Origin: Limosilactobacillus oris DSM 4864
GTDB taxonomy: Bacteria > Bacillota > Bacilli > Lactobacillales > Lactobacillaceae
Direction of reading: 5' to 3'
NCBI RefSeq assembly: GCF_001434465.1
Contig: NZ_AZGE01000008.1
Span: 1 to 64,000 of the forward strand
DNA length: 64,000 nt
This document shows, piece by piece, positions 22,319-38,777 of the stretch. The position numbers were made by a program, and so were the translations under genes. Every line of letters starts with the position of its first letter. Position 1 is the stretch's first letter. Under the pieces are notes generated by a model. That model was not told the origin of the DNA. It made no database searches and saw only the letters and a list, made by a program, of their open reading frames with translations.

Positions 22319-22331
22319 GGGGGAGAATAAA

Positions 22332-25272: not shown

Positions 25273-25332
25273 CCGCCTTGCTGGTCCGTGACGGTTATCA
25301 ATGAAACGAGAGAGTGGGAAATAACCTCCTCG

Positions 25333-25408
25333 ACAAGGCGTGTGGCTAACCTAGAACGATAGTTGGCACGGAACGGGCCGGCGATCGTTCGTAGGCAAAT
25401 AGCCTTGT
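25333..25408 (+). ncRNA. Structured noncoding element, copy A
   Basis: The element is 76 nt, closed by ACAAGGC/GCCTTGT. Inside are GGCTAACCTAGAAC, a hairpin GAACGAT/ATCGTTC whose loop side carries TGGCACGGA, and CGTAGGCAAAT. Copy B at 38254-38331 (opposite strand) keeps these sequences but changes both stems in a compensating way. Longer arms GTGGGAAATAACCT (25314) and AGGTTTTCCAC (25433) enclose copy A. The family is not recognised. The transcribed strand is not certain. Confidence 0.55.
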
Positions 25409-25473
25409 GGTTACGACACGAAGTTAGCCTGTAGGTTTTCCACGTTATCTTAGTAATAGTTAAGAACTAGCAA

Positions 25474-25508
25474 GAGGCTGGTGAGAAAAAACGTTTTCTC
25501 CCAGCCTC
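25474..25508. terminator. Terminator between the surface protein and degV
   Basis: GAGGCTGGTGAGAAAA pairs with TTTTCTCCCAGCCTC. The T tracts are poor on both sides, so efficiency is uncertain. Confidence 0.6.
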
Positions 25509-25528
25509 CTCGTTTGCGTATTACCGGA

Positions 25529-26365
25529 CTATTTTTCAAAGCCGATCATTAAACCGCCGCTTTCCGCGTAGTAGGAACACAGGGCCCCGCAGGCTGTGAT
25601 GTTAATGATGGCGTTGGGGTAGCGGGCGCTAATCGCACTCGCTAAGCGCGCCGCTTTTTCCCGGCAGTCAACGTGGTCAATGAAGACCCGGCCGCCGATG
25701 TAGCCCTGCTTTTCCATGACCGTAACGATCTTATGCAGCATTCGTTTGCCGCCCCGCAGTTTGCCGAGCAGCTTAAATGCCCCCACATCACTGGCGGTGC
25801 CGTAGACATAGAGGTTGAGCAGGTGGGTCAGCTTGGCAATTGCCGGACTCACCCGGCCGTTATTGGCGAGGTTGTCGAGTTCCGCGAGGACGAAGAGCAG
25901 GTCGGTCTGCTGGATCTGCTGGTTCATGAGCTGGATAATTTCGTCAAAGGGGTACTGGTGGTTGATGAGAATTGCCAGCTGGGAAGCGAGCAGCCTGACC
26001 TGGGGACCGGCCGACTTGGTGTCGAAGACGTGAATCTTGGTTTCGGGGTGGTCCGCCAGGTATAGCTTTGCGGCCTGCACGGCGGAGTTGTAGCTGCCGG
26101 ACAGGGCACTGGTAATAGTCAGGACGTATACCTGGTCTGCGCCGGCAAAGGACTGGAGCCAGGCCCCCACGCTTGGGCAGGCCGAGGATGTGGCCGTCTT
26201 GGTGTTTTTAAGCGCTTGCTGGAAGTTGGCCAGGTCTAATTGGGGGTCGTCTGACCATGACTGGCCGTTGACGATTAGGGTCAGGGGAACGCTGCGGTGC
26301 GGAACTCCGCCAATCAGCGGTTCAAACGAATTGGCACCAGAGTCCGTAATAATTTTAACTATCAT
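25529..26365 (-). CDS. DegV-family fatty-acid-binding protein
   Basis: The 278-residue protein has the DegV/FakB layout: KIITDSGANSF at the start, TSSACPSVGAWLQSF (the ligand-side TSxPS-like motif), ITSALSGSYNSA, and a second domain with a GGRVFIDHVD strand. FakB proteins hold a fatty acid for phosphorylation by the FakA kinase during lipid synthesis; several paralogues per genome are usual. Monocistronic on the minus strand. The start follows a ribosome site in GGGAGATCAACAAG. Confidence 0.88.
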   Translation of the reverse strand: MIVKIITDSGANSFEPLIGGVPHRSVPLTLIVNGQSWSDDPQLDLANFQQALKNTKTATSSACPSVGAWLQSFAGADQVYVLTITSALSGSYNSAVQAAKLYLADHPETKIHVFDTKSAGPQVRLLASQLAILINHQYPFDEIIQLMNQQIQQTDLLFVLAELDNLANNGRVSPAIAKLTHLLNLYVYGTASDVGAFKLLGKLRGGKRMLHKIVTVMEKQGYIGGRVFIDHVDCREKAARLASAISARYPNAIINITACGALCSYYAESGGLMIGFEK

Positions 26366-26512
26366 CTTGTTGATCTCCCATTGGTAATTATTTTTAACAG
26401 CATAGCCATTTTAGCGAAACTTGTCAACGGTTTTTAAAAAACTTATCGTTAAGAGCGCTGTTGACACCGAAACTGGCGAATCGGTAAAATGGGACCCAGG
26501 AGGAATAGCCGA

Positions 26513-26998
26513 ATGAGTGCAGACGAAGTCAATGAAAAATTTAACCTGCCGCCGTACCAGGAGCTGCCAGACATGGGGCTCTACTTGAACCAGGTCGTGA
26601 CCTACCTGCAAAAATGCGTGGCGCCCTTTCCGAGCGTCAAGGTCACCAGCTCGATGGTTAGCAATTACGTTAAGCACCAGTTGGTGACCCGGCCGCAGAA
26701 GAAACTGTACCGGCGCGAGCAGATTGCCCAGCTGCTGTTTATTGTGGTCGCAAAAAACGTCCTGGAGCAGAGCAACTTGTACAAGGCGATTCAAATCCAG
26801 CGCGAAAGCTACCAGACCAGGGTGGCCTATAATTACTTTGCTGAGGAGCTGGGCAACGTTTCCCGGTACGTCTTTGGCCAGCAGGACCAGTTAGAACGGG
26901 TGGGGCATGAGCAGACCAAGCAAAAGCAAATGCTGCGCAATGTGATCATGGCCTTTGCTTATCGGGAATACCTTTACCAGTTCTTTGAAGGGCAGTAA
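26513..26998 (+). CDS. DUF1836 protein
   Basis: The protein has 161 residues from ATG 26513; AGGAGG at 26498-26503 rules out the upstream ATG at 26489. The pattern LPPYQELPDMGLYLNQVVTYL and VTSSMVSNYVKHQLV with YRREQIAQLLFI matches DUF1836. These proteins look like MerR-type winged helices and are probably DNA-binding regulators. Target genes are unknown. It is divergent from degV, separated by 147 bp. Confidence 0.8.
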   Translation: MSADEVNEKFNLPPYQELPDMGLYLNQVVTYLQKCVAPFPSVKVTSSMVSNYVKHQLVTRPQKKLYRREQIAQLLFIVVAKNVLEQSNLYKAIQIQRESYQTRVAYNYFAEELGNVSRYVFGQQDQLERVGHEQTKQKQMLRNVIMAFAYREYLYQFFEGQ

Positions 26999-27089
26999 GC
27001 GATGGGGGCAGCCAATTGTTTACCGGAGGGCGCTGTTAATTAAAAATAGGCGAGTTTGGGAAGAAACTATGGAACGCCTTAATATGAAG

Positions 27090-27130
27090 AGCCGGACGAT
27101 GGATCAATTGCAGATTCACCGTCCGGCTTT
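27090..27130. terminator. Terminator after the DUF1836 gene
   Basis: AGCCGGACG pairs with CGTCCGGCTTT across a 20-base loop that also shows GGAT/ATTC complementarity. Position suits both the plus-strand gene and the convergent gene ending at 27185. Confidence 0.7.
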
Positions 27131-27184
27131 GCTAGTTAGGCCAGATATTTTTTAAGCAGTTTTTGTTCATTGTGGAAGCCGGTT

Positions 27185-27613
27185 TCAAGGCCGAAAGTGT
27201 TCAGCGATGTGCTCGTCAAAATAGCCCAGGTGGTTAACCTCTAACGTTTTGAGGTAGGCCACTAGTTCGACCGCGCCGCTGGGACTTAATTCGTTGACCG
27301 CGTTTAATCCCATCCCCGTCGGTACGGTTTCACTCATTGCGGTTACCTGCCGGTCAGCAGTGACCGTTGCCTGGGAACAAGAAATGGCCCAACGGCCGCC
27401 AACATTGGGAGCAAAAACGAAGAAGAGACTGAAGTCGCTTGCGAGGTAGGCCGGCAGCGCCCAAGCCACGTCATCTAACCGCTGGGGGTACAGGTCGCCT
27501 TGGATAGCGAAGCGGTCAATATTGAGTTCGGTCGGCGCAGTTGTCAGCATGAACATGGTATTTTCAAATTCCTTCATTCCCAGTTTCATCTCGGGGCGGA
27601 TTTCAGGATGCAT
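27185..27613 (-). CDS. Protein of unknown function (142 residues)
   Basis: A soluble, acidic, beta-rich protein with no signal peptide (FSLFFVFAPNVGGRWAIS; LSPSGAVELVAYLKTL). I do not recognise the family. The GAGAATG ribosome region and ATG at 27613 follow the stop of the upstream gene by 11 bp, so both form a two-gene operon. That operon is divergent from the MolA-like binding protein gene and lies at the left edge of the nitrate/molybdenum cluster. Confidence 0.65.
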   Translation of the reverse strand: MHPEIRPEMKLGMKEFENTMFMLTTAPTELNIDRFAIQGDLYPQRLDDVAWALPAYLASDFSLFFVFAPNVGGRWAISCSQATVTADRQVTAMSETVPTGMGLNAVNELSPSGAVELVAYLKTLEVNHLGYFDEHIAEHFRP

Positions 27614-27624
27614 TTTTCATTCTC

Positions 27625-28593
27625 CTAACTAAAGTGTTCACGGTAGTATTGGTACTTTTGACGAATGTCTTTGACCGGGGCGTCTAGGATGTGTTCGCGG
27701 CCCTGATCATCGACTAGGAAGTGCTGGTCTACGAGCTGCCCAAACTTGATCCGGAGGAGGGGAGCATGGCTAAACAGTTCGTCGAGGTTGGTCGTCATAA
27801 TGTCGACGTGGTCCAGGTAGTTGGGAACAACCAGGTGGGTGAAGTCGGTAAAGCAATCCGCAAGGACGTCGGCATAGGCGTGGTCGACGTATTTCAGCTC
27901 ATTGGTTTCAAGCTGGTTGTAATATTCCCGGCTGGTCAATCCGCGCCGGTTTTTAATGTTATGCTGCTCATCGTACTGGTGGGTCAGGTAGGCATCCCAG
28001 TCCCGGTAGGCATAGACGGTTAGTCGGGCGACTAGTTGGCGGCCCTCCTTATTGACGTTTTGGGGAACCATGGCACCTGCCTGATCGATTAAGTAGGGGC
28101 GGACCAGGTGCTGAGCAATCAGGTAGTAGAAGGTATGCGGCCTTAATTCCCGGTCGTGGCCATCTTCGTACAGCTTTCCACTCCCGACCAGGGGCGGCAG
28201 TTTGCTGAGGCTCAGTCGGGTCTGGTTGACGGCGTAAATAATGTCTTCGATTTCCTGGTCAATGATAGGACGCTGGCTGATTGCCTGGAGCAGTCGGGTA
28301 TAAAGACGGGTCAAGTTACCCAATTCATTTTTTTGATTGGGATAGACCCCACCCTGGGATTGGTACTTACGAGTTTCCCGTTCTAATTGGCGCTCAAGTT
28401 CGATAGTCAGCCGCTCTACTTGGACCGGCAGTACAGGGTGGTCAACGCCTTGCCGGGCGATCGTTTGGACAGCCTCCCGGATGACCGGCCGCATTTCAAC
28501 GAAGTCGGGGAAATCAAAAACGTTTTGAAAAGCCTGATCCTGTTTGAGACGGTGGTAGGCTGCTTCCTTAAAGTCATACTGGTGTGGTTTCAT
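27625..28593 (-). CDS. Protein of unknown function (322 residues)
   Basis: It is read from ATG 28593 behind GGAGG; a longer frame to 28638 lacks a site. The protein is soluble and mostly helical, with charged Gln/Arg/Leu stretches (VERLTIELERQLERETRKYQ) and a C-terminal part rich in Tyr and His. No motif is recognised. It shares a divergent promoter region with the binding-protein gene at 28721, where a TAGGG site also lies, so it may be part of the nitrate-respiration regulon. Confidence 0.65.
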   Translation of the reverse strand: MKPHQYDFKEAAYHRLKQDQAFQNVFDFPDFVEMRPVIREAVQTIARQGVDHPVLPVQVERLTIELERQLERETRKYQSQGGVYPNQKNELGNLTRLYTRLLQAISQRPIIDQEIEDIIYAVNQTRLSLSKLPPLVGSGKLYEDGHDRELRPHTFYYLIAQHLVRPYLIDQAGAMVPQNVNKEGRQLVARLTVYAYRDWDAYLTHQYDEQHNIKNRRGLTSREYYNQLETNELKYVDHAYADVLADCFTDFTHLVVPNYLDHVDIMTTNLDELFSHAPLLRIKFGQLVDQHFLVDDQGREHILDAPVKDIRQKYQYYREHFS

Positions 28594-28615
28594 GATCGTC
28601 CTCCATTCTAGCCCC

Positions 28616-28697
28616 ATTATAAGAAAGACCGGCGGCAAATAGAATTAGGGATATTGATGAAAACCCTGATTATCTTTTAACGCGCAAAATAGTATGA
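28616..28697. promoter_or_regulatory. Divergent promoters with TAGGG site
   Basis: On the minus strand TATAAT (28616-28621) is preceded by TTCTAT at 17 bp. On the plus strand TATGAT near 28692 is a -10 candidate for the binding-protein gene. TAGGGATATTG begins at 28646, and CCCTGA follows at 28664. It resembles half of the TAGGG-N4-CCCTA type site seen before narG. Confidence 0.45.
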
Positions 28698-28720
28698 TAA
28701 AGGAGAAGGAGTTGAATGTG

Positions 28721-29740
28721 ATGAAAAAAAGATGCTGGGGGGTCCTGCTAGCAGCGCTCGCCCTTTTGCTGGCTAGTCCCGCTGTCAAGGCAAGTTCGAC
28801 CCGGACGGTTAAGGATATGGACGGGCAGACGGTTCGTATTCCACGCCATGTCCGACGGCTGGCTGACCTGTGGCACGCCAATAACCAGGTCGTTTTGCTA
28901 TTAGACGGGCAAAAAAAGCTGGTGGCCACAACCCCATTAATTAAGAAACAATCCTGGTTTACAACCGTTGACCCGGGGATCAAAAAGGTGACGGCGCCCT
29001 TTGCTGGTAACCAGATTCAAGTTGAGGAACTGCTAAAGACGAAGCCGGATGTGGTAATCGCCGCGGATCCGGCCCAGGTTAAAACGGCCCGACAGGCTAA
29101 ACTGCCAACCGTGAACGCAATGTACACTGATTTTGCCGGTCTGAAACGGTCCGTAACCCTAACGGCCACGATTCTTGGCGGCCGGGCACCCCAACTTGCT
29201 CGACAGTATAACCAGGAACTAGATAGCAACATCAAGCTGGTCAACCGCCGTTTAGAAGGGATCCAGCAGCGCCCAACGGTGGTTCACTTTGTCAATTCTG
29301 CTGACTTGACAAAGGTTGATGGCCGACACACAATCGTTGACCAGTGGATTAAGATCGCGGGCGGGCAGAACGCGATCACCAGGCGGGGCAACCAGGTTAC
29401 CGTGACGGCGGAAGAACTAGTCAAGGCTAATCCGGACGTGATCATTGTTGGCAGCAGCTCTAACCAGGCGGCCCGGCGTGCTTTAAAGAGGGACCCGCAG
29501 CTCCGTCAGCTAACGGCGGTTAAGCAAGGCCGGGTTTATGGGAATCCTCAAGGTACGTTCCCTTGGGATCGTTACAGTGCAGAAGAAGCACTGCAGGTGT
29601 TGTGGGCGGCGCAGAAGCTGCACCCGGCCCAGATGAAGGGAATTGACATGGTTAAGCAGACACAGGACTTCTACGCCCGCTATTACCACTATCAATTATC
29701 GAAACACCAAGCCCAACAGATTTTAGCGGGCGAAAATTAA
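28721..29740 (+). CDS. ABC transporter substrate-binding protein (MolA/FecB type)
   Basis: The protein has 339 residues from ATG 28721 (GAAGGAG site). A signal peptide covers residues 1-26, ending VKAS; there is no lipobox Cys. The body is a helical-backbone class III binding protein: DMDGQTVRIP, KPDVVIAADPAQV, ANPDVIIVGSS, PWDRYSAEEAL. Class III proteins carry siderophores, cobalamin, haem or, in Haemophilus MolA, molybdate. Its place beside molybdenum-cofactor and nitrate reductase genes makes molybdate or another oxyanion the likely cargo. The ATPase and permease are convergent just downstream. Confidence 0.8.
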   Translation: MKKRCWGVLLAALALLLASPAVKASSTRTVKDMDGQTVRIPRHVRRLADLWHANNQVVLLLDGQKKLVATTPLIKKQSWFTTVDPGIKKVTAPFAGNQIQVEELLKTKPDVVIAADPAQVKTARQAKLPTVNAMYTDFAGLKRSVTLTATILGGRAPQLARQYNQELDSNIKLVNRRLEGIQQRPTVVHFVNSADLTKVDGRHTIVDQWIKIAGGQNAITRRGNQVTVTAEELVKANPDVIIVGSSSNQAARRALKRDPQLRQLTAVKQGRVYGNPQGTFPWDRYSAEEALQVLWAAQKLHPAQMKGIDMVKQTQDFYARYYHYQLSKHQAQQILAGEN

Positions 29741-29749
29741 GCCCTAATT

Positions 29750-29798
29750 AAAGCACGGATTAAGAATCCTTCACCGGTTTTCCTAATCCGTGCTTTTG
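29750..29798. terminator. Bidirectional terminator between molA-like and molC-like genes
   Basis: AAAGCACGGATTA pairs with TAATCCGTGCTTT. The stop codon of the minus-strand ATPase gene (29783-29785) lies within the stem. Confidence 0.85.
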
Positions 29799-30580
29799 TT
29801 TGTTGATAAGGCCAGCTGGCAAGAATACCGGCCCAGTTTTGGCAGGTAGACAACGCTAAGTGGCGTCTGATAAACAGCTGTTAATTTTTCCTGGGTCAGC
29901 AGGGCATCCTGACTGCCGACGACAACCTGCTGGTCATTCGTGAAGAGGCCGACTTGCCCGCCAAGCATAAAGGCGTGATCTGGGAGGTGGGTGGTAAGGA
30001 TAATTGCCATCCCCTTGGCCGCTATTTTTTTGAAGAGGGTAATCAGCTCCGCCTGCCGGCCAAGGTCGAGGGCCGCCATTGGTTCGTCTAGAACCAGAAC
30101 CCGAGGTTGCTGCACAAGTCCGTGAATGATGGCAATCAGTTGTTGTTGCCCACCAGATAAGCTGACAAAAGGGATCGTGGCCAGGTCAGCCAGCCGGAAA
30201 CGCTGGAGATAGTGCTGGACGAGGGCTATCTCCGTGGGACCAGGGGTTTGAAAGGGCCTGAGGTAGGCGGCCCGCGCAGTTAAGAGGTAGTCCTGAACGG
30301 ACAGTGTGGATGCGGCATGGTAATCCTGAGGAACATAGGCCAGGTGGTGGGCGATCTCCTGGCGGCTTAACCGGTCGAGGGGTGTTGAAGCGAGGGTGAT
30401 ATTCCCGCTAGCAGGGGGGACTAAGCCGAGCAGGCAACGCAATAGGGTTGATTTTCCCACTCCATTCGGGCCGAGCAGGGTTAAAATTTCGCCGGCCCGA
30501 ATGTTAAACGAAACACGCTTAAAGATGGGGACTTGGCCCGGATAGGCAAAACTAAGTTGGTTAACACTGAGCAGGTTCAT
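29783..30580 (-). CDS. ABC transporter ATPase (FecE/MolC type)
   Basis: The 265-residue protein has Walker A LLGPNGVGKST (residues 35-45), Q-loop YVPQDYH, signature LSGGQQQ, Walker B VLVLDEPMAAL and a switch His in TTHLPDH. It powers import through the permease encoded just upstream; the ATG overlaps the permease stop by 4 bp. With the binding protein it makes a BtuCD-like type II importer, here probably for molybdate, although iron chelates are an alternative. Confidence 0.9.
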   Translation of the reverse strand: MNLLSVNQLSFAYPGQVPIFKRVSFNIRAGEILTLLGPNGVGKSTLLRCLLGLVPPASGNITLASTPLDRLSRQEIAHHLAYVPQDYHAASTLSVQDYLLTARAAYLRPFQTPGPTEIALVQHYLQRFRLADLATIPFVSLSGGQQQLIAIIHGLVQQPRVLVLDEPMAALDLGRQAELITLFKKIAAKGMAIILTTHLPDHAFMLGGQVGLFTNDQQVVVGSQDALLTQEKLTAVYQTPLSVVYLPKLGRYSCQLALSTNKSTD

Positions 30581-31572
30581 GGATACTGGGCCTTCTTTCT
30601 GACGAGGAGGTAAATAAACAGGGGAGCGCCGACAAAACCGGTGAGGATGCTAAGGGGAATTTCCCCAGCAGAGATGGTTCGGGCTAGGGTATCGATAAGG
30701 AGTAAGAAGAGGGCTCCCACTAGTGCAGAGAGGGGCAGGGCATACCGTTCATCAGTGCCAACGAGCCGCCGGGCCATATGGGGGATAACCAGGCCGACCC
30801 AGCCGATGTTCCCGCTAAGGCAGACGGTCGCCGCCGTGAGCAGGGTACCCGCGACGATGACTAGCAGGCGCTCCAGCCGGACGTTGAGTCCTGTGCTGGT
30901 TGCCAGGTGGTCGCCGAGCGAGAGGACGGTCAGGTGCCAGCGGAGCAAGCCCAAGGTAATACCCCCAATCAGTAGCGCTGGCAGAGTGGCCGCAATGCTG
31001 GGCAGGTCAACCTTGGCAAGGCTGCCGAGCTGCCAGTAGACGATGCTTTGCAACTGAGAGTCGGGGTCGGCAATGTATTTTAACAGCCCGAGGATGGCCT
31101 GCATGAAGCCGGAGATGACGATTCCAGAAAGCACCAGGATCAGCATTCCCCGCTGCCCCAGGATCCGGGCGACAAACAGGGTGATGACGACGGCGATAAT
31201 GCCGCCGGCAAAAGCCCCTAGTTGAGTCGGCCAGATCCCACCGCCGGCCAGGATGGCGATTGCTGCACCGACTGCCGCCCCGTAAGAGACCCCGAGGATA
31301 TCTGGGGAGACGAGCGGATTTTGAAAGACACTTTGAAAGGCACTCCCAGCCGCTGCTAGGCCGGCCCCGATTAGCAAAGCGCCGAAGATTCGGGGCAGCC
31401 GGATCGTGTAGAGAATATTGGTAATCGCCGGGTTGCGGGACGGTTGGGTCAAACCGGTCCAGATTTCAACCGGGCTAAGGCTGATCCGCCCACACCCGAG
31501 GGCAATTACCGCTAGGAGGGGGACCAGGATTATGGTGCTGAGTAAAATTAACCGTGGTGAACGCTTAGCCAT
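30577..31572 (-). CDS. ABC transporter permease (FecCD/MolB type)
   Basis: The protein has 331 residues from ATG 31572 (AAGGAAGGAG site); the frame upstream to 31701 overlaps the flavodoxin gene and is not coding. About ten membrane helices and the family motifs RLPRIFGALLIGAGLAAAGSAFQ, NPLVSPDILGVSYGA and GNIGWVGLVIPHMARRLVG identify a FecCD-family subunit. It is the middle gene of flavodoxin - permease - ATPase with short overlaps, so translation is coupled. Confidence 0.9.
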   Translation of the reverse strand: MAKRSPRLILLSTIILVPLLAVIALGCGRISLSPVEIWTGLTQPSRNPAITNILYTIRLPRIFGALLIGAGLAAAGSAFQSVFQNPLVSPDILGVSYGAAVGAAIAILAGGGIWPTQLGAFAGGIIAVVITLFVARILGQRGMLILVLSGIVISGFMQAILGLLKYIADPDSQLQSIVYWQLGSLAKVDLPSIAATLPALLIGGITLGLLRWHLTVLSLGDHLATSTGLNVRLERLLVIVAGTLLTAATVCLSGNIGWVGLVIPHMARRLVGTDERYALPLSALVGALFLLLIDTLARTISAGEIPLSILTGFVGAPLFIYLLVRKKAQYP

Positions 31573-32005
31573 GCTCGGGCTCCTTCCTTGCTCGCTTGAG
31601 TTGGGCGACCGCCTGCCGAGCTCCACTGGCAGTTTCTTCATAGTCAACTCTGATGGGTGCTCCCAGCCGCCGGGCCCCCTGGTCATGCAGGGCCCGGTCA
31701 AAAATTAAGACGGCTCGGGCAAAAGCGGCGTGACCATAATCCAGATCACCGGCTCCGACCACCAAGTAGGATAAGTGCGGGAGGGGCATTCCCTGGACCT
31801 GGTGGAAAAACTGTTCTTCCAGCGGTGTTAAGTAACCGTCGCCATACGTGCACGGACAGAGAACCAGACGGTTGCAGTTAGCCAAGGCGGCAGCACTGGT
31901 TTCAGCTAGTCCGCATCGGGTCATTTGCGGGCAGTGCTCAGCAATTAGTTGGCTGAGTTCAAGGTTATGTCCAAACAGGGTTGAGTATAATATTAATTCC
32001 CGCAT
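31565..32005 (-). CDS. Flavodoxin-like protein
   Basis: The protein has 146 residues from ATG 32005; the ATG at 32017 overlaps the AAAGGA site. The FMN phosphate loop is seen as YSTLFGHNLEL (residues 6-16), and a second loop as CPCTYGDGYLTP, the Gly-Asp-Gly pattern common in flavodoxins. It is a low-potential electron carrier. In this operon it could donate electrons for metal reduction or cofactor maturation, but that is inference. It overlaps the permease gene by 8 bp. Confidence 0.8.
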   Translation of the reverse strand: MRELILYSTLFGHNLELSQLIAEHCPQMTRCGLAETSAAALANCNRLVLCPCTYGDGYLTPLEEQFFHQVQGMPLPHLSYLVVGAGDLDYGHAAFARAVLIFDRALHDQGARRLGAPIRVDYEETASGARQAVAQLKRARKEPEHG

Positions 32006-32136
32006 ATTCGTCTTCATCCTTTCGTTACTTATTGTAGTATAGCACCGGGAATCCGGGACGATTATTAGGGAATTAACCGATTCTAAGTTGCCCGTTTTTT
32101 TGGCATAATGGGAGTGTTGAAAGCGGGTGATTGAGT
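32006..32136. promoter_or_regulatory. Divergent promoter region, flavodoxin operon / moaE operon, with TAGGG site
   Basis: TAGGGAATTAACC begins at 32066, a half-site of the TAGGG-N4-CCCTA type. On the minus strand TATACT lies about 35 bp before the flavodoxin start region. No strong plus-strand promoter elements are seen before moaE, which suggests activation. Confidence 0.4.
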
Positions 32137-32538
32137 TTGTACTATTTACGGATCAGCGATGCGCCGATTGAGGTCGCGCCCTTGTACCAAAAACTGGTCG
32201 ATCCCCAGTTTGGCGGCATTGATATGTTCGTTGGTACGATTCGCCAATGGACGGGCAGTATTGAAACAAAGCGAATTGACTACACTGCCTACCATGGGAT
32301 GGCGGAACGGCAATTAGAAAAGATTGCCCAGCCGATTGAAGCGCAGGGGGGCCGGGTCGTGGTTGTCCACCGGACTGGTCAGTTAGCACTGACTGACATC
32401 GCCGTCTTTGTCGGGGTGGCCGCCCCACACCGCGCGGAGGCGTTTAAATGGTGCCAGTACGTGATTGATACTTTAAAGCAGACGGTACCAATTTGGAAAA
32501 AGGAGTACGATACTGATAAGGTAAGGTGGGGAAACTGA
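32137..32538 (+). CDS. moaE: Molybdopterin synthase catalytic subunit MoaE
   Basis: The protein has 133 residues if read from TTG 32137, 6 bp after GGGTGA; TTG 32131 is the alternative. MoaE features are FVGTIRQWTG, the AYHGMAERQLEKIA block, VHRTGQLALTDIAVFVGVAAPHR, and the catalytic-site KQTVPIWKKEY with its two Lys. With MoaD it inserts two sulfurs into cyclic pyranopterin monophosphate to give molybdopterin. The stop overlaps the moaD start (TGATG). Confidence 0.92.
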   Translation: MYYLRISDAPIEVAPLYQKLVDPQFGGIDMFVGTIRQWTGSIETKRIDYTAYHGMAERQLEKIAQPIEAQGGRVVVVHRTGQLALTDIAVFVGVAAPHRAEAFKWCQYVIDTLKQTVPIWKKEYDTDKVRWGN

Positions 32539-32783
32539 TGGAAATAACGGTTAAATTATTCGCATTTCTCCAGGATCGGTTAGGACCGACCGTGACGGTC
32601 AGGGTGTCTTCACCAGTGAAGGTGGCTGACCTCTTTGATCAAGTGGCCAAGCAGGACCCGACGCTTGGGCCGACCCTGAATAACTCGCGACTGGCGGTTA
32701 ACCAGGAATTTGTGGATGCGGCGACGGTAACGTTGACGCCCACAGATGAAGTTGCAATTATTCCGCCGGTTAGTGGCGGCTAA
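32538..32783 (+). CDS. moaD: Molybdopterin synthase sulfur carrier subunit MoaD
   Basis: The 81-residue ubiquitin-like protein ends in the required Gly-Gly (PPVSGG), which MoeB adenylates and which then carries the thiocarboxylate sulfur. The ATG at 32538 overlaps the moaE stop, behind AAGGTGGGG. The FAFLQDRLG start is typical. It is followed by narK in the same direction. Confidence 0.93.
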   Translation: MEITVKLFAFLQDRLGPTVTVRVSSPVKVADLFDQVAKQDPTLGPTLNNSRLAVNQEFVDAATVTLTPTDEVAIIPPVSGG

Positions 32784-32828
32784 CCACTAACCGTTTTGCA
32801 AGTTTACTTTTGGAGGAGGACTGATTAT

Positions 32829-34020
32829 ATGTCTAATGTTAAAAATGTTGCTCATGGCAGCCGTGCCAATGCGTATACAGCACTTATTCTTTCAACCTTG
32901 GCAATGATTGTTTGTTTCATGTCCTGGTCAAACTTTGCCCCGTTGGCGTCACAAGTGGCTCAGATGTTTCATTTGTCCGTGGCTGAGCGGACACTTCTGT
33001 TAGCGACGCCGGTCTTGCTGGGTTCGATTATGCGGATCCCAGTGGGGATTTTATCTGACCGCTATGGTGGGAAGAAGGTTTACCTGATTTTGATGGCCTT
33101 CATTCTCATTCCACTACTGATGATTCCCCACGTTCATTCCTTTGGGATGCTCCTGTTTGCGGCCCTGCTGGTCGGGATGTCCGGGACCTCCTTTGCCGTA
33201 GGGGTTTCCTATGCCTCTGTATGGTTCCCCGCTGAGCAGCAGGGACTGGCGCTGGGAATCGTTTCGATGGGGAACATGGGGAATGCCGTCGCGGCGATGA
33301 CCCTGCCATACATTTCTAAGACGGCTGGTTTTGATGCTGTATACTACTTTTTGATTATCCTGACGATCATTTTTGGACTCCTGTTTGCCATCTTTTGTAA
33401 GGAAATGCCGGTTGACAAGAGCAAGACAATTGCGGGGGCGCTATCCGTAGCGAAGGATAGCGGGACCTGGTACCTGTCCCTCTTCTACTTCCTGACCTTT
33501 GGTCTCTTTGTGTCCTTTACTAATTTGACGCCTACTTTCCTGACGGGAATGTTTAAGTTTAACCCGGTCACGGCGGGCCTTTATTCCGCCCTCTTTGCCT
33601 TTGTCTGCACACTGGTGGCCAGTGGGTGGCTACTTAGCAGATAAGAAGCGGCCAATGAGCCTTTTACAGTGGACCTTTATTGCAATCATTGTTTTTGGAC
33701 TGTGGATTATGTTGAGCTTCCACAGTCAAGGCCTCTTCATCGCCGGAATCGTCCTGATCGGTCTGTCCGCCGGAATTGGTAACGGGGTTGTTTTCAAGAT
33801 GGTTCCATACATCTCCAAGGGTAATACCGGTGCTGTCACTGGTTTCGTTGGTGCTATGGGTGGCCTGGGTGGCTTTTTCCCGCCGCTGGTAATTGGTTAC
33901 ATCTACCAGTGGACGGGCAGCTACGAACTGGGGATTGGCCTGCTCGTCTTGACGGGGGTCATCTGCTGGTTCGCCCTGTGGAAGCACTACATTCATGGCG
34001 ATGTGCACATCGTTAAATAA
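32829..34020 (+). pseudogene. narK: Nitrate/nitrite transporter NarK (frameshifted)
   Basis: The start at ATG 32829 has a GGAGGAGG site. The product is an MFS protein of about 396 residues with NarK signatures: SWSNFAPLASQVAQMF, GILSDRYGGKKV, and the nitrate signature GMSGTSFAVGVSYASVWFP near residue 120. A +1 shift in the GGG at 33624-33626 ends the first frame at 33644. Removing one G gives VASGGYLADKK and an open frame to 34020, where AGIGNGVVFKMVP repeats the nitrate signature. It would import nitrate and export nitrite for NarGHJI. Either a recent mutation or a sequence error. Confidence 0.88.
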
Positions 34021-34030
34021 GTATTATTAA

Positions 34031-34067
34031 AAGAGACTGGAAGAAGAAATTCAACCAGTCTCTTTTT
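34031..34067. terminator. Terminator after narK
   Basis: AGAGACTGG pairs with CCAGTCTCT, followed by TTTTT. Confidence 0.88.
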
Positions 34068-34110
34068 GAATGGGGCATACTGACCCGCGCGGATTAAACC
34101 GCCAAATTTA

Positions 34111-35016
34111 TTACTGCACCGCCTTCGCCAGTTGGTTAACTAGGGTCAATAGCTGTTTGCGGCCATTGCCGGCGGGCAGGACCTTAATGTCGAGCCGGGC
34201 CTGGCTGAGCATTTCCGTGATGATCTCTGCTGCCTTTGGCCGGGCCGTCATGGTAAATTGGTAGGCTTGATCAAAGGCCGCCGGAGTTGGCCGATGGTCC
34301 TGACCGAAGAAGCTCTTGAACCAGGCAGGGTGGTCCTCAATAGCAAAGAGAAGGGGTAAGGGATACTGCCCGGTCAGGATCGCGGTGGTCAATGTTGTAG
34401 GCTGCTTAAATAGGGTGGCAAGTTCGTTCACCATCGTTCCCGCGCTACCAATGGTTTGACCAATCTGCCCGGCCAGGCTGACCAAGTCGGGCCCCAGATT
34501 CGCGAGTACTGCCGCTTGTTTAGCAGTGATTGCTGCGAGCAAACCTGCTCGAGACTTGACGTCTAGCAGGTAATCAGCAACTTGGAAGTGCTGGTTGTAG
34601 TTGAATTGCAGCCGCTGCAACTGGGCAATCATAAAATCGCCACCGTCAACAGTTAGCTCTTCGACTACCTGGGGTGGATTGCCGACCTTGCCGAGGCGGT
34701 TAACAAATTGTCCCATTAAGTAACTGGCAGCAAAGGCCCCGGCTTTTTGTTGGGCTACTGTCCCCACGGTAAGCTGGTTGGGTAAAAAAGCTGGCGGACA
34801 GGTGCTGGCCCCCAGCGACAACAGTTCTGGAAGCTGAGCAGCCGTAACCTGGTCGACCGTCAAGTCTTCAGCTGTGAATTGACTAAGAGCCGCAAACAGC
34901 TGATAGCGGGTGTGTCGCGCTGCCTGGTCGCTGTTAGGGTCCAGGAGGCGCTGAATTAACGGCGGTAGTTGGCTGACGATGACAGCTAGTCCGCCGGTGA
35001 GACGTTCATCAATCAT
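34111..35016 (-). CDS. Unknown protein, possibly a degenerate class 1 isoprenoid synthase (301 residues)
   Basis: ATG 35016 is preferred over TTG 35019 (AAGGA site). The protein is all-helical. The order GDFMIAQLQ, then VKSRAGLLAAITAKQAAVL, then GQIGQTIGSAGTMVNELATLFK recalls the second half of polyprenyl diphosphate synthases, where a GD, a K(T/S)AxL and an FQIxDDxxD appear in that order. The second Asp-rich motif is lost here (VNELATL). It may be a related but altered enzyme or a non-catalytic subunit. NarGHI needs menaquinol, so an isoprenoid link would make sense, but this is tentative. Last gene of a three-gene operon. Confidence 0.5.
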   Translation of the reverse strand: MIDERLTGGLAVIVSQLPPLIQRLLDPNSDQAARHTRYQLFAALSQFTAEDLTVDQVTAAQLPELLSLGASTCPPAFLPNQLTVGTVAQQKAGAFAASYLMGQFVNRLGKVGNPPQVVEELTVDGGDFMIAQLQRLQFNYNQHFQVADYLLDVKSRAGLLAAITAKQAAVLANLGPDLVSLAGQIGQTIGSAGTMVNELATLFKQPTTLTTAILTGQYPLPLLFAIEDHPAWFKSFFGQDHRPTPAAFDQAYQFTMTARPKAAEIITEMLSQARLDIKVLPAGNGRKQLLTLVNQLAKAVQ

Positions 35017-35020
35017 CAAA

Positions 35021-35995
35021 TCAGTCCTTAAACTTGTTAATTTCGGCAGTTAACTGTTCGGCGACCGGAATAAAGATGTCGGTCAGGTACTTATTAAAGT
35101 CGACCTTGAGCTGTGATGTTTCGGTGAGCCGCTGGGCCCGCTGAAAGGCATCATTGCGCATATTAACGATTAGCGTTTGCCGTTGGTGGCTGAGGTACTT
35201 GGCGAGTTTTTCGTGCCGCGCCTGGTAGCGGAGTAAAAAGTAGTAGAAAATTTCGTAAAAGGTATTATCAAGAACCCAAAAGACGGTGCTGCGGCGGACA
35301 TTGTCACTCATCATCTCCGTAAAGGAGTTGTCACCGAGCAGTTCGTGGTTAGCAAAGGCCCCAGCGGATAAAACAATGGCTTGGACTTCGTGCATATCGG
35401 CCATATACTGACAGAACTGGTCGAGTTCACTATCGTCCAGAGTGAAACCCAGCTGCTCTTCCCGCTCGCTGGCGGCCATTTTGCCAAAAGTAGCTTGATA
35501 CTGCCGATTGACGTCCTTGCTATCGGCGATGAGGTCAGCGCAAACGGTAGTCAGGGTTTGGAAGTTCTTTTGCAAAAACCCGTGCACCGTTTGCCAAACT
35601 AGTTCGATTTGCTGGTTAAAATTACCAAATAACTCCTGGACGGTACCCACCAGCTGCTTTTCGACCTGGCCATCCTCGGTATGGGGCGCGTACTGAACGA
35701 CTAGTGGGAGACTATCATCAGCGTGGTTAAGCCCATGCTTGCTCCGCTGGTCCCGTTCATATTCCTTCAGTTCGTTGAGATCCAGCAAGCCCAGCGGCAT
35801 GATGTTGATTTCACTGTTGGTCGCCATGATTTGCAGGGAAAACGGACTGGTATCAGTCTGGTTAGCGGTTAGTGACTTGAGGGCGTCAAAGAGCTTCTTG
35901 CGGTTGGCAAGGTCGTCTTCTGGGTCCGCGTAAAAGCCTGACGTATAGATGGCCTGGTTATTGTATTCGCGATTGAGTTTGTCTTCAGCATTCAT
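35021..35995 (-). CDS. Unknown protein (324 residues) in the nar/nre cluster
   Basis: A soluble acidic, largely helical protein with no signal peptide and no recognised motif. It has clusters of aromatic residues (STVFWVLDNTFYEIFYYFLLRYQ, about 235-257) and a helical C terminus. The ATG follows AAAGGATC, and the gene starts just after the stop of the 91-residue ORF. Gene order and spacing indicate co-expression with its neighbours. I cannot assign a function. Confidence 0.6.
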   Translation of the reverse strand: MNAEDKLNREYNNQAIYTSGFYADPEDDLANRKKLFDALKSLTANQTDTSPFSLQIMATNSEINIMPLGLLDLNELKEYERDQRSKHGLNHADDSLPLVVQYAPHTEDGQVEKQLVGTVQELFGNFNQQIELVWQTVHGFLQKNFQTLTTVCADLIADSKDVNRQYQATFGKMAASEREEQLGFTLDDSELDQFCQYMADMHEVQAIVLSAGAFANHELLGDNSFTEMMSDNVRRSTVFWVLDNTFYEIFYYFLLRYQARHEKLAKYLSHQRQTLIVNMRNDAFQRAQRLTETSQLKVDFNKYLTDIFIPVAEQLTAEINKFKD

Positions 35996-35997
35996 GA

Positions 35998-36273
35998 TTA
36001 ATGATCCTTTGTACTTGTTGTTTGCATCAGAGCAGCGAGTTTTGCTTTGCCAGCACTGGTCAGTCGGGCACTAGTCAGGTCCATGCCTGCCAGGCTGGTG
36101 GAAAATGAGGTATCAAGCTTGGCCCCCATGATTAAGCCTTCTTGGACCGCATAGGCCGTCGTTTGAAAGAGGTTTGACTGGGGGTTGATTTGCCGCCGGG
36201 TCGAGAACCGCCCCCGGGCAACGTCACTGAGGATTCCCCGTAGTTCATCGTCTTGACTAAGGTTGCTTGCCAT
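35998..36273 (-). CDS. Unknown small protein (91 residues) in the nar/nre cluster
   Basis: The first gene of the three-gene operon, read from ATG 36273 behind CGGAGGGG. It begins with an acidic helix (SQDDELRGILSDVARGRF) and a middle segment with small residues (SFSTSLAGMDLTSARLTSAGKAKLAAL). No family recognised. A TATAAT -10 lies at 36309-36314 on the minus strand. Confidence 0.6.
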   Translation of the reverse strand: MASNLSQDDELRGILSDVARGRFSTRRQINPQSNLFQTTAYAVQEGLIMGAKLDTSFSTSLAGMDLTSARLTSAGKAKLAALMQTTSTKDH

Positions 36274-36308
36274 GATTAATCCCCTCCGAGTAAATAGTCT
36301 TCTCCTTT

Positions 36309-36314
36309 ATTATA
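36309..36314 (-). promoter_or_regulatory. -10 element of the three-gene unknown operon
   Basis: TATAAT on the minus strand, about 36 bp upstream of the ATG at 36273. The -35 region is weak (TTTTAT at 17 bp), which would fit activator control. It lies just beyond the nreC terminator. Confidence 0.45.
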
Positions 36315-36330
36315 GAAAAGAGCTGAGCAA

Positions 36331-36366
36331 AATAAAATCGGGGATTCCGCTAATTTGGAATCCCCG
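36331..36366 (-). terminator. Terminator of nreC
   Basis: On the minus strand CGGGGATTCC pairs with GGAATCCCCG, followed by ATTTTATTTT. Confidence 0.85.
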
Positions 36367-36371
36367 AATCC

Positions 36372-37025
36372 TTAAAAATCAATTAGGTGGTGGTGAATAG
36401 CATACCGAACCAGCTCAACCCGGCTATGGAGGTGGAGCTTGCGGGAGATGTTGGCCTTATGGGCCTCAACGGTCTTCGTGGAGATAAAGAGCTTTTCGGA
36501 AATCTCTCTGTTGGAATAACCGAGGGCCACCAGTGGGAAGACTTCTTTTTCCCGCTTGGAGAGGACGCTATATCCCTTTAAGTTTACGTCGGCACCACTG
36601 GCGTTGATCTGTTTGAGGTCGGACTTGCTGATAAGAATGTTAGCATCGAGATAGTTTTCCCCGTTGACAACGTGTTTGAGGGCGGTGAGAATCTCACCAT
36701 CAGATGAGCTCTTCAAAATGTATGACATAGCACCGTTGGACATGGCCCGGTTGATGTACTCCTGTTCCTCGTGCATGGACAGGATGATGATCTTAACCTT
36801 GGGAAATTTATCATGAATCCGCTTGGTCGTGATTAGGCCGCTTTCGCCAGGAGGCATACTGAGGTCCATGATTAATATATCGATCCCGCCCTGTTCGATT
36901 CGCAGGTAGGTGTCAGTACCGCTAGCCGTACCGTCGACCACCGTAAAACCGGGTTGCTGGTTGACCAGGTAAGAAATCCCCGAACGGACGATGGCATGGT
37001 CATCCGCCACTAATACTTTATACAT
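36372..37025 (-). CDS. nreC: NarL/FixJ-family response regulator NreC
   Basis: The 217-residue protein has a receiver domain with DD (residues 8-9), phospho-acceptor Asp54 (LIMDLSMPPG) and a conserved Lys in YILKSSS. A LuxR-type HTH follows (LSKREKEVFPLVALGYSNREISEKLFISTKTVEAHKANI is split here as LSKREKEVF and SNREISEKLF, then STKTVEAH). It is the last gene of nreBC, 14 bp after nreB. NreC should activate nar and related promoters under low oxygen with nitrate. Confidence 0.92.
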   Translation of the reverse strand: MYKVLVADDHAIVRSGISYLVNQQPGFTVVDGTASGTDTYLRIEQGGIDILIMDLSMPPGESGLITTKRIHDKFPKVKIIILSMHEEQEYINRAMSNGAMSYILKSSSDGEILTALKHVVNGENYLDANILISKSDLKQINASGADVNLKGYSVLSKREKEVFPLVALGYSNREISEKLFISTKTVEAHKANISRKLHLHSRVELVRYAIHHHLIDF

Positions 37026-37039
37026 AATTATCGCTCCAA

Positions 37040-38062
37040 TTAATTTGTTTGCTGGTAAGGAAATTTCACCGTGATGGTTGTTCCAGCATTAGGCTTGGAA
37101 TGAATACTGAAGGCGCCGTTAAGGGCCTCGACCCGTTCATTCATGTTCATCAGGCCGAGGGAATGTCCATTAAAGCCGTGCTGCTGGGGGTCAAAGCCCC
37201 GCCCGTCGTCAAGAACCTCGAGCTGGATGAAGCGGGGGTGGTCCGTGATAATCACATTAATTTCGTTTGGCGATGCGTGCCGCAGAGCATTGTTAATGGC
37301 TTCCTGGCAGATCCGGTAAAGAACGTTCTCGACGTCAGTCGTCAGCTGGTCGGTACTGGCGTTGCCAATTACGTTAATCGTAACTCCAGAATTTTCCTGC
37401 AACCGTTTGGCGAGGGCCTTAACAGCCGGAATCAAGCCGAAACTGTCGAGAACCGAGGGCCGGATGTCAAGGGCCATCCCCTTAATCGCTGCCAGGGTTT
37501 CCTGCAATTGGATTTCGACTGCCTGGCTGATTTGGGCACGTTGGAGGGTGGATAGATCTTCATGGTGTAAGCGCCGGACCCCCATAATGGCGGAGTAGAC
37601 CCCCTGAGCGATGCTATCGTGGAGGTCCTGGGAAATCCGTTGCCGTTCCCGTTCGTGAGCTCGGTTTACATACTGGTTTAGCTGGCGTTGCTCTTCAATT
37701 TTCGTCAGCCGCTGCTGCTGTTCGCGATTTTCTAAGATCAGGGCGAAGACGCCCTTCTTGCTTTCGAGTGGTTTATACACGAGTGAAAAATGGATTTTTT
37801 GTCCTTGAGGGTTCCGGGACGAGATTGGGACCGCCACAAAGTCCATCCGGCTTTTTATCTGGCAATTCGCGCAGTCATTATGGCCGTGCTGCTGCCAAGC
37901 ATTTTTAGCAATTTGGAGAATGTAGTCAGGACTAAGCCCAATTTGATTAGTCAGGTGCTGGGCCAAGCGGTTGCTCAAAACCAGTCCGTCGTTTTGAAAA
38001 ATCATCACGGCATCCGGGGACTGGTCAAAATAGTCTCGAATCCAGTTAATGCTTTCGAGCAT
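37040..38062 (-). CDS. nreB: Oxygen-sensing histidine kinase NreB
   Basis: The 340-residue protein has an N-terminal PAS-like sensor (1-110), the HisKA_3 dimerisation domain with His148 (ISQDLHDSIAQG) and an HATPase (EINVIITDHPRF; DDGRGFDP; GLMNMNERV). In Staphylococcus, NreB holds an oxygen-labile [4Fe-4S] cluster on four Cys in two pairs. Here the PAS domain has only one pair, Cys64 and Cys67 (CANC). Cluster binding may therefore need a dimer interface or be altered. GGGGGAGGAG precedes the ATG. Confidence 0.9.
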   Translation of the reverse strand: MLESINWIRDYFDQSPDAVMIFQNDGLVLSNRLAQHLTNQIGLSPDYILQIAKNAWQQHGHNDCANCQIKSRMDFVAVPISSRNPQGQKIHFSLVYKPLESKKGVFALILENREQQQRLTKIEEQRQLNQYVNRAHERERQRISQDLHDSIAQGVYSAIMGVRRLHHEDLSTLQRAQISQAVEIQLQETLAAIKGMALDIRPSVLDSFGLIPAVKALAKRLQENSGVTINVIGNASTDQLTTDVENVLYRICQEAINNALRHASPNEINVIITDHPRFIQLEVLDDGRGFDPQQHGFNGHSLGLMNMNERVEALNGAFSIHSKPNAGTTITVKFPYQQTN

Positions 38063-38094
38063 GAAAATCTCCTCCCCCTAAACATTCAAGTTTT

Positions 38095-38123
38095 ATCTTA
38101 TAATAATAGTAGTGAAAGCGCAA
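38095..38123 (-). promoter_or_regulatory. Promoter of nreBC
   Basis: On the minus strand TTGCGC (38118-38123), a 17-bp spacer and TAAGAT (38095-38100). It would allow nreBC to be expressed separately from nreA. Confidence 0.5.
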
Positions 38124-38150
38124 TTGATCCGCCAGTCAGAGGAAAGCGTT

Positions 38151-38189
38151 GAGGGCCCGTGACAAAGCCATATTTTGCCGCAGGCCCTC
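38151..38189. other. Hairpin between nreA and nreB
   Basis: GAGGGCC (38151-38157) pairs with GGCCCTC (38183-38189), with GCC/GGC inside. On the plus strand it is followed by CTTTT. It lies between the noncoding element copy B and the nreBC promoter, so it could end read-through from nreA poorly or insulate the promoter. Confidence 0.45.
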
Positions 38190-38253
38190 CTTTTAGTTCT
38201 GAATGTTTTAACAATATCGTGTGCCCCGTCTCAGAGGTCTAGGGGCTAGTGCT

Positions 38254-38331
38254 ACGGAGCAAAATAATTTGCTTACGGACAATCCACTGGTCCGTGCCAG
38301 TGATTGTTCTAAGTTAGCCTGACAGCTCCGT
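38254..38331 (-). ncRNA. Structured noncoding element, copy B
   Basis: Read on the minus strand: a 7-bp closing stem ACGGAGC/GCTCCGT, then GGCTAACTTAGAAC, a hairpin with CACTGG/CCAGTG around CACGGA, then CCGTAAGCAAAT. Length is 78 nt against 76 nt for copy A. The blocks GGCTAACYTAGAAC, TGGCACGGA and CGTARGCAAAT are shared, while both stems differ in sequence yet keep pairing. It starts about 12 bp after the nreA stop. Confidence 0.55.
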
Positions 38332-38342
38332 TTTAACATTAA

Positions 38343-38777
38343 CTAATGAATAAAGCCCTGCAGTTGTTTTACAGATTCCTGGCTAACCTGTCGCTTGCCG
38401 TCACGGTAGCCGGCAAGCAGGACCCCCGTCACAACCCCCATCGTGCTAGATGAAAGGGGAATTGCAGCGGCAGCAGTAAGTGCTTCGGCCCCAGCGATCG
38501 GGGTGTACATAGCACTGGAAAGGGTATATTTAGGCAGGTCGTTGCTATAAAATGGCTTCCCTGTTCGTAAAACCAGCCCGGCAATTCCAAAGCCGCGACG
38601 GAGCGTTATCTTACGAAAGCGTTCATTGCGGTTAACTGCGACAAAACACCATTTGATTGGGTAGGGATACAATTCCGCCTGGAGAGCAATTCCAACAAAT
38701 TCAAAGTCGCTGTGGTGGTAAACACGATTAACTAGTTTTTGATAGTCATAAATCGTACTTGGTTCTTCTGTAACCAT
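38343..38777 (-). CDS. nreA: Nitrate receptor NreA (GAF domain)
   Basis: The 144-residue single GAF-domain protein has the NreA pattern: FEFVGIALQAELYPYPIKWCFV, NERFRKITLRRGFGIAGLVLRTGKPF (shown in parts), and AAAIPLSSS. In Staphylococcus carnosus NreA binds nitrate and, when empty, inhibits NreB. GAGGAGG precedes the ATG. It is the last gene of the moeB-to-nreA operon, separated from nreBC by a noncoding element and a promoter. Confidence 0.88.
   Translation of the reverse strand: MVTEEPSTIYDYQKLVNRVYHHSDFEFVGIALQAELYPYPIKWCFVAVNRNERFRKITLRRGFGIAGLVLRTGKPFYSNDLPKYTLSSAMYTPIAGAEALTAAAAIPLSSSTMGVVTGVLLAGYRDGKRQVSQESVKQLQGFIH

What the first reader, a model, noticed from the sequence alone, without database searches (positions are those of the whole stretch)
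25333..38331. Small structured noncoding element in two copies with compensatory base changes
Copy A (25333-25408, plus) and copy B (38254-38331, minus) lie 13 kb apart on opposite strands beside unrelated genes. They share GGCTAACYTAGAAC, TGGCACGGA and CGTARGCAAAT in the same order and nearly the same length (76 and 78 nt). Both are closed by 7-bp stems of different sequence (ACAAGGC/GCCTTGT versus ACGGAGC/GCTCCGT). In the inner hairpin CGAT/ATCG becomes CAAT/ATTG. Conserved unpaired blocks with changed but still paired stems are the mark of selected RNA structure. Each copy sits just after a gene stop. I know no RNA family of this form. The transcribed strand is unresolved, because wobble pairs favour plus for A and are ambiguous for B.
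Basis: partly seen in the sequence, partly recalled or inferred. Interest (0 to 1): 0.72.

Follow-up and report, generated by a model that had tools for sequence, protein, structure and literature searches.

The report
Dispersed element that replaces gene terminators
The two copies belong to a family of short folded DNA elements scattered through many lactobacillus genomes, where each appears to take the place of the stop-transcription hairpin at the end of a gene; the fold is kept by paired mutations, which is unusual for such a small mobile element.

Summary
A (plus) and B (minus) belong to a dispersed family: 31 of 50 same-genus genomes (Limosilactobacillus), 521 matches, 20 in the own genome, and two further genera. 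Rfam has no match. On 22 short forms 27 of 39 pairs change on both sides, 0 of 500 shuffles; G-U cells outnumber A-C cells 74 to 12, so the folding strand is plus for A, minus for B. At 6 of 6 readable empty sites the relative has another terminator-like hairpin instead. Copies sit at gene 3' ends in either orientation (tandem pairs 28 sense, 24 antisense), against a plain 3'UTR RNA. Ends resemble IS1182-type terminal repeats of the genus; stem-loop replacement is published for IS1272. Best reading: a MITE-like, terminator-replacing element with an unusually constrained fold. No IS1182-type, Y1 or RT gene was found in the own genome, so the mobiliser is unproven.

The parts
25312..25326 (+). 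Copy A: 5' end, GAGTGGGAAATAACC (terminal-repeat-like; 5' arm of helix P0 is 25314-25326)
   Evidence: R3 match starts at 25312; alignment of 21 copies shows this as the 5' edge of shared sequence; moderate likeness to IS1182-type ends (11 of 17)
25333..25408 (+).
   Evidence: covariation; R1 94.2 bits, R2 93.3 bits
25409..25443 (+). Copy A: 3' arm of P0 (25409-25413 and 25436-25443), split by the 3' arm of optional helix P3 (25414-25435); the P3 5' arm is mostly missing in A
   Evidence: Alignment of long and short forms; P3 pairing convincing only in G061 and G027
25444..25473 (+). Copy A: linker
   Evidence: Alignment
25474..25508 (+). Copy A: terminal hairpin H2, intrinsic-terminator-like, GAGGCTGG...CCAGCCTC
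   Evidence: Sequence and fold; a hairpin plus T-rich tail lies in this region in 80 of 95 copies on this strand
38254..38331 (-). Copy B core: P1 arms 38331-38325 and 38260-38254, P2 hairpin about 38311-38274
   Evidence: leave-one-out model R2 32.2 bits, E 7.6e-6; full-hairpin model R3 only 14.9 bits, E 0.19
38192..38346 (-). Copy B: possible remnant of P0 (arms about 38346-38332 and 38213-38192) around the core
   Evidence: AATGTT/AACATT paired in the fold; the rest read by eye, so weak
38151..38190 (-). Copy B: hairpin in the place of H2; T-rich tail only on the plus-strand reading
   Evidence: Sequence; terminator test negative on the element strand, positive on the reverse

Best explanation
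A and B are members of a dispersed, MITE-like element family of Limosilactobacillus and relatives. SHOWN: about 20 copies in this genome; a conserved, covarying hairpin (P0-P1-P2) folding from one strand; a terminator-like hairpin (H2) at the 3' end of most copies examined; location at gene 3' ends; at six sites the element stands where relatives have a different terminator-like hairpin. INFERRED: the element moves by stem-loop (inverted-repeat) replacement, in which a target hairpin is exchanged for the element, as published for IS1272; its ends are terminal repeats read by an IS1182-type transposase acting in trans; H2 and the long hairpin take over termination for the host gene in either orientation, so insertions are tolerated. 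The strand-specific fold is kept because folding as a single strand matters for the element's spread or for the transcript end; which of these is not known.
For: Copies: 31 of 50 genus genomes, 521 matches; family-wide sample 12 of 301 genomes, 2 of 40 genera; order-wide sample with R3 5 of 395 genomes, 2 of 80 genera, the second being G091, which was in no training set. Structure: 27 of 39 pairs with double changes; G-U 74 against A-C 12 cells. Replacement: six sites; the six hairpins of the empty alleles, trimmed by hand, each fold better than all of 200 shuffles, z -4.2 to -8.8. Hairpin plus T-rich tail in the H2 region: element strand 80 of 95, reverse 75 of 95, both 67 of 95; control 11 of 60 random, mostly coding stretches, one strand. 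Gene context: 3 of 96 copies between divergent genes against 127 of 494 background gaps. IS link: IS1182-type ISs (DUF772 plus DDE_Tnp_1_6) end in GAGGCTGGGAATTAAC or GAGGCTGGGAAAAAAC (by eye); of 13 hand-picked element 5' ends, best matches to six hand-picked IS ends were 16 of 17 (G071), 15 (G027, G061, G010), 14 (G006, G025), 13 (G004, G091), 12 (G066, G063, G056), 11 (G000), 10 (G008) (shifts up to 2 allowed). IS1182-type ISs begin where H2 should be in L118, L144 and L151 (by eye). Published mechanism: PMC5678879 (passages).
Against: No PF13751, PF05598, Y1_Tnp or RVT_1 match in the own genome, and no PF13751 or PF05598 match in G008, which has most copies (83). IS1182-type presence is only mildly enriched: 12 of 31 element-bearing against 3 of 19 other genomes. 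GAGGCTGGGA-type terminators may be common in this group anyway (recalled), which weakens the end match; 33 (G000) and 36 (G008) of 2000 shuffles match as well, and G091 matches the second IS type by only one base more than the first (13 against 12). Strand-specific covariation deep inside is not expected of an ordinary DDE-transposon MITE. At one of the six sites (copy 62) the short allele resembles the element's linker by eye, so a deletion is not excluded; at copy 53 a short repeat (AAATAG) flanks the element. B fits the full model poorly.
Confidence: 0.58

Rival explanations
1. A structured RNA (3'UTR element or 3'UTR-derived sRNA) selected for a host function such as mRNA end stability, dispersed because useful.
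For: Strong covariation on one strand with G-U tolerance; two internal-loop columns show T/T or G/G in 21 of 22 rows; terminator-like hairpin downstream; an element follows the same gene in species with 68-71% flank identity.
Against: In tandem gene pairs orientation is 28 sense to 24 antisense, so many copies would not be transcribed on the folding strand from the adjacent gene; presence is polymorphic between close relatives. No expression data here.
Confidence: 0.17
2. Spread and homogenisation by recombination or template switching between terminator hairpins, without a transposase.
For: Orthologous copies L075/L094 are 78.9% alike while within-genome medians are 93.4% and 94.7%; L076/L101 71.4% against 94.7% and 88.3%. 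Mosaic edges that keep resident hairpin bases at copies 53 and 67. Resident hairpins at copies 18 and 67 share GAGGCTG/CAGCCTC-like arms with H2. No known mobiliser in the own genome.
Against: At the other four sites the resident hairpin has little sequence in common with the element (by eye). Between close relatives orthologous copies are the most alike (L094/L125 98.7%, L078/L090 97.4%), so homogenisation is not fast.
Confidence: 0.17
3. REP-like element moved as single-stranded DNA by a Y1 (RAYT/IS200-type) transposase.
For: Strand-specific fold; Y1_Tnp in 31 of 50 genomes.
Against: No Y1_Tnp match in the own genome; 21 of 31 element-bearing against 10 of 19 other genomes; none in G032 (36 copies), G061 (32), G057 (18), G071 (17).
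Confidence: 0.04
4. Non-autonomous retroelement or group II intron relic moved by a reverse transcriptase.
For: RVT_1 in 14 of 31 element-bearing against 2 of 19 other genomes; the position beside terminators recalls group IIC introns (recalled).
Against: No RVT_1 match in G000 or G008; no intron or other RNA-family match.
Confidence: 0.04

Closest known systems
IS1272 / IS1182 family, stem-loop-replacing transposition (PMC5678879, passages seen)
   Same: Target is a stem-loop, targets share no sequence, target is replaced, no duplication; IS1182-type ISs of this genus resemble the element in their ends.
   Different: IS1272 is an autonomous IS with a transposase; this element is about 160-240 nt, without a visible gene, with a long internal covarying hairpin. 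'MITE' does not occur in that paper's main text.
BOX, RUP and SPRITE repeats of Streptococcus pneumoniae (PMC3049150, passages seen)
   Same: Small dispersed repeats with predicted RNA structure, BOX modular; SPRITE terminator-like and enriched near gene 3' ends.
   Different: Different sequence and layout; the paper reports TSDs for BOX and RUP and no comparable empty site for SPRITE, whereas here a hairpin is replaced. 'Pseudoknot' and 'compensatory' do not occur in its main text.
Bacterial MITEs in general (review PMC10969869, passages seen)
   Same: Short, non-coding, multi-copy, intergenic, transcripts predicted to fold.
   Different: No clear flanking duplications; the internal fold is kept by covariation across genera. 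'Lactobacillus' and 'IS1182' do not occur in the review's main text.
REP / RAYT elements (recalled; papers seen only in the listing)
   Same: Extragenic, palindromic.
   Different: Longer, carries a terminator-like hairpin, and not tied to Y1 transposase presence.

Membership tests
MITE | Short, non-coding, many dispersed copies | tested here: met
   521 matches in 31 of 50 genomes; lengths
MITE | Terminal inverted repeats shared with an autonomous IS | tested here: inconclusive
   Ends 10 to 16 of 17 alike to IS1182-type ends of relatives, hand-picked; no such IS found in the own genome; the two element ends are imperfect repeats
MITE | Presence/absence polymorphism at orthologous sites | tested here: met
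   Six sites
MITE | Target-site duplication | tested here: not met
   Read by eye: none at five sites; at copy 53 AAATAG lies on both sides but is also close to the element's own linker
IS1182-type stem-loop replacement | Target stem-loop removed on insertion | tested here: met
   Six of six readable sites; copy 62 could also be a deletion
IS1182-type stem-loop replacement | Dependence on an IS1182-family transposase | not testable with these tools
   Only a correlation: 12 of 31 against 3 of 19 genomes
Rfam RNA family | Score above a curated gathering threshold | tested here: not met
Structured noncoding RNA | Covariation of paired positions beyond shuffles | tested here: met
   no phylogeny-corrected test (R-scape not available)
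Structured noncoding RNA | Transcript from the folding strand | not testable with these tools
   No RNA-seq
REP/RAYT element | Y1 transposase in the carrying genome | tested here: not met
   No match in G000

The most novel reading that the evidence does not exclude
The conserved one-strand fold is itself the working part of the mobility: a folded single strand (RNA or ssDNA) of the element is recognised and guides replacement of terminator hairpins, giving a class of mobile terminator cassettes that spread by structure rather than sequence and become homogenised within species.
Probability: 0.18. Interest if true: 0.82.

Novelty: new variant of a known kind. Interest (0 to 1): 0.57.

Why it matters
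If right, transcription terminators in a genus of gut and food bacteria are a replaceable niche: a small element swaps itself in for the resident terminator, in either orientation, and still looks like a terminator. It offers a natural series of empty and filled sites to test stem-loop-replacing transposition, which in the papers that I looked at is described for IS1272, and it poses a clear question: why a mobile element keeps a covarying, strand-specific fold in its interior.

Tried and rejected
Exact-block pattern in 56 genomes, the own one among them, and in genome contigs found nothing beyond the own genome: too narrow. Rfam at both thresholds: nothing above gathering. Y1 and RT mobilisers: not supported. 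Phage collection: no match; plasmids: 2 partial matches of about 50 bases in two L. fermentum records. A strict hand-made terminator scan gave 47 of 95 (element strand) and 31 of 95 (reverse), control 28 of 170; it allowed one mismatch and no bulge, so I replaced it by an energy-based scan; both are told. P3 as a general pseudoknot: arms pair beyond every shuffle only in G061 (2 sequences) and G027; G006 is moderate, G010 and G000 are near the shuffled mean, so P3 is not claimed for the family. Integron attC was considered by eye and dropped (recalled motif does not fit). Prior description: I saw only the listings (titles, abstract starts, capped lists), none of which shows a paper on this element; subscription journals are mostly not held. 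PMC2267715 (passages) names one L. johnsonii family, Lac-1, within coding sequence.

Rows dropped before counts: one search used 98 copies (67 from long stretches, 31 from single loci; orthologous copies not removed; crude ORF calls; the background includes the element-bearing gaps); 96 have a neighbour called on both sides. Searches used 95 (three with gaps or too short). Of the gap candidates I read six sites; L085/L117, L104/L085, L117/L085 and L125/L075 were too diverged or not empty, and the L111 and L126 rows repeat sites already counted. Model scans were capped per genome (96 candidates, 16, 9). G091 was not among the R1 matches.
Full report
WHAT WAS GIVEN. Two 76-78 nt stretches, A (25333-25408, plus) and B (38254-38331, minus), said to be copies of a structured noncoding element. 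Both are there as described. A lies between the convergent genes of an Amidase_5-domain protein (stop at 25272) and a DegV protein (25529-26365, minus). B lies just after a GAF-domain gene (38343-38777, minus), upstream of a histidine kinase gene (37040-38062, minus).

HOW MANY. The exact blocks occur twice in the own genome, but a 121-nt query around A gives 24 matching pieces there and matches in 23 of 50 same-genus genomes; the same kind of query around B finds only itself in the own genome and weak matches in 3 others. A covariance model R1 built from 21 sequences, A and B among them (A2), finds 521 matches in 31 of 50 genus genomes (my sum of the per-genome column; at most 96 candidates per genome were scored): 20 in the own genome, 36 in G032, 32 in G061, 83 in G008; 19 of 50 have none at E 0.01. 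In a family-wide sample 12 of 301 genomes in 2 of 40 genera match (at most 16 scored per genome). A longer model R3 found a third genus (G091, 7 matches) in an order-wide sample: 5 of 395 genomes, 2 of 80 genera (at most 9 scored per genome). The genus is Limosilactobacillus: named hits include L. reuteri WF-AA1-C and L. balticus BG-AF3-A, with contigs of the same length as contigs of G064 and G020. B is a true relative: a model built without it (and without the diverged L039) scores B at 32.2 bits, E 7.6e-6 in the window; the full-hairpin model R3 gives B only E 0.19.

ANATOMY. Some copies carry two further arms that could form P3; the pairing is convincing only in G061 and G027. For A the unit is 25312-25508.

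STRUCTURE. On A2, 7 of 14 predicted pairs change on both sides in some row. On 22 short-form elements (A4), the 39-pair structure that I drew from those rows is formed in 92.3% of cells; 27 pairs have a change on both sides (7 of 7 in P1); 0 of 500 shuffles reach any of the five measures; slid controls pair 30-44% of cells. The rows are related and the structure was drawn from them, so this is not a phylogeny-corrected test. G-U cells number 74 and A-C cells 12: the strand that folds is plus for A, minus for B. Two loop columns show T/T or G/G in 21 of 22 rows (my reading), a non-Watson-Crick covariation, with the same caution about relatedness.

WHERE IT SITS. For 98 copies, crude ORF calls give 41 between convergent genes, 28 after the upstream gene in sense, 24 after the downstream gene in antisense, 3 between divergent genes, 2 with one neighbour missing; background gaps of 100-800 nt in the same loci, element-bearing ones included: 272 tandem (141 and 131), 127 divergent, 95 convergent. 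The rule is a gene 3' end, not an orientation. A hairpin plus T-rich tail lies in the H2 region in 80 of 95 copies on the element strand and 75 of 95 on the other (67 both), against 11 of 60 random, mostly coding stretches; a stricter scan gave 47 and 31 of 95 with control 28 of 170. Several of the negatives on the element strand come from G018, and B is negative too.

WHAT IT DOES TO A SITE. Six sites could be read with and without the element in close relatives. In each the empty allele has a terminator-like hairpin, different at each site, and the element with H2 stands in its place. The six hairpins, trimmed by hand, fold better than all 200 shuffles each. At copies 53 and 67 bases of the resident hairpin arms survive around or inside H2, which suggests that the hairpin was there first. 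At copies 18 and 67 the resident arms are themselves of the GAGGCTG/CAGCCTC kind. No clear target duplication is seen; at copy 53 AAATAG lies on both sides. At copy 62 the short allele shares letters with the element's linker by eye, so a deletion is not excluded there. Some positions are old: L075 (G000), L094 (G066) and L125 (G018) follow the same gene, as do L076 and L101, yet the elements are only 78.9% and 71.4% alike between G000 and G066 against within-genome medians of 88-95%: concerted evolution or repeated replacement. Between closer relatives orthologous copies stay alike (L094/L125 98.7%, L078/L090 97.4%).

WHAT MIGHT MOVE IT. No Y1 transposase or reverse transcriptase match was found in the own genome. 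I recalled the IS1272 paper and looked it up: PMC5678879 (passages) describes stem-loop-replacing transposition with targets that share no sequence and no duplication. IS1182-type transposases (DUF772, DDE_Tnp_1_6) occur in 15 of 50 genomes by PF13751 and 14 of 50 by PF05598; 12 of the 15 are among the 31 element-bearing genomes. Their ends, GAGGCTGGGAATTAAC or GAGGCTGGGAAAAAAC in one type and GGGGCTGTGACATAAGT in another (by eye), resemble element 5' ends: of 13 hand-picked ends, best matches run from 16 of 17 (G071) to 10 of 17 (G008), with G000 at 11; the G091 end matches the second type 13 of 17 and the first 12 of 17. In L118, L144 and L151 such an IS begins where H2 should be. Against this: no such transposase was found in the own genome or in G008, and for G000 and G008 33 and 36 of 2000 shuffles match as well. 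So replacement of terminators is well supported, the IS1182 link is plausible, and the role of the internal fold is open.

NOVELTY. No Rfam family reaches threshold, and none of the papers listed or 65 is visibly about this element (titles and abstract starts only). BOX, RUP and SPRITE of pneumococcus (PMC3049150, passages) are the nearest dispersed repeats in kind. I file it as a new variant of a known kind: a MITE-like element that replaces terminator hairpins and carries a covarying fold.

Noticed in passing
window 22311-25272: The repeat-rich Amidase_5 protein upstream of copy A is preceded by an ORF with the same kind of repeats in another, overlapping frame (22311-23432 and 23371-25272), which suggests a frameshift or a sequencing error.
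   Followed up: no
window 32796-34020: A transporter-like gene seems split over two overlapping frames (32796-33644 and 33595-34020) near what look like molybdenum-cofactor and nitrate-type regulatory genes (named by eye, no search).
   Followed up: no
L009, L061, L064, L072: Elements sometimes come in pairs: L009 has sequence resembling part of a second, inverted copy across the terminator hairpin; L061, L064 and L072 carry partial second copies (by eye).
   Followed up: no
L125-L133 (G018): Several G018 copies lack a detectable hairpin plus T-rich tail on the element strand; at L125 the sequence after the element appears deleted up to the next gene.
   Followed up: partly
G063, G018, G065, G066, G061: Reverse transcriptase (RVT_1) matches number 11 to 31 per genome, some of them fragments, which looks like an expansion of group II introns.
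   Followed up: no
L187, L199 (G061): IS1182-type ISs are followed by T-rich sequence directly after their right terminal repeat, as if the IS ends themselves act as terminators.
   Followed up: partly
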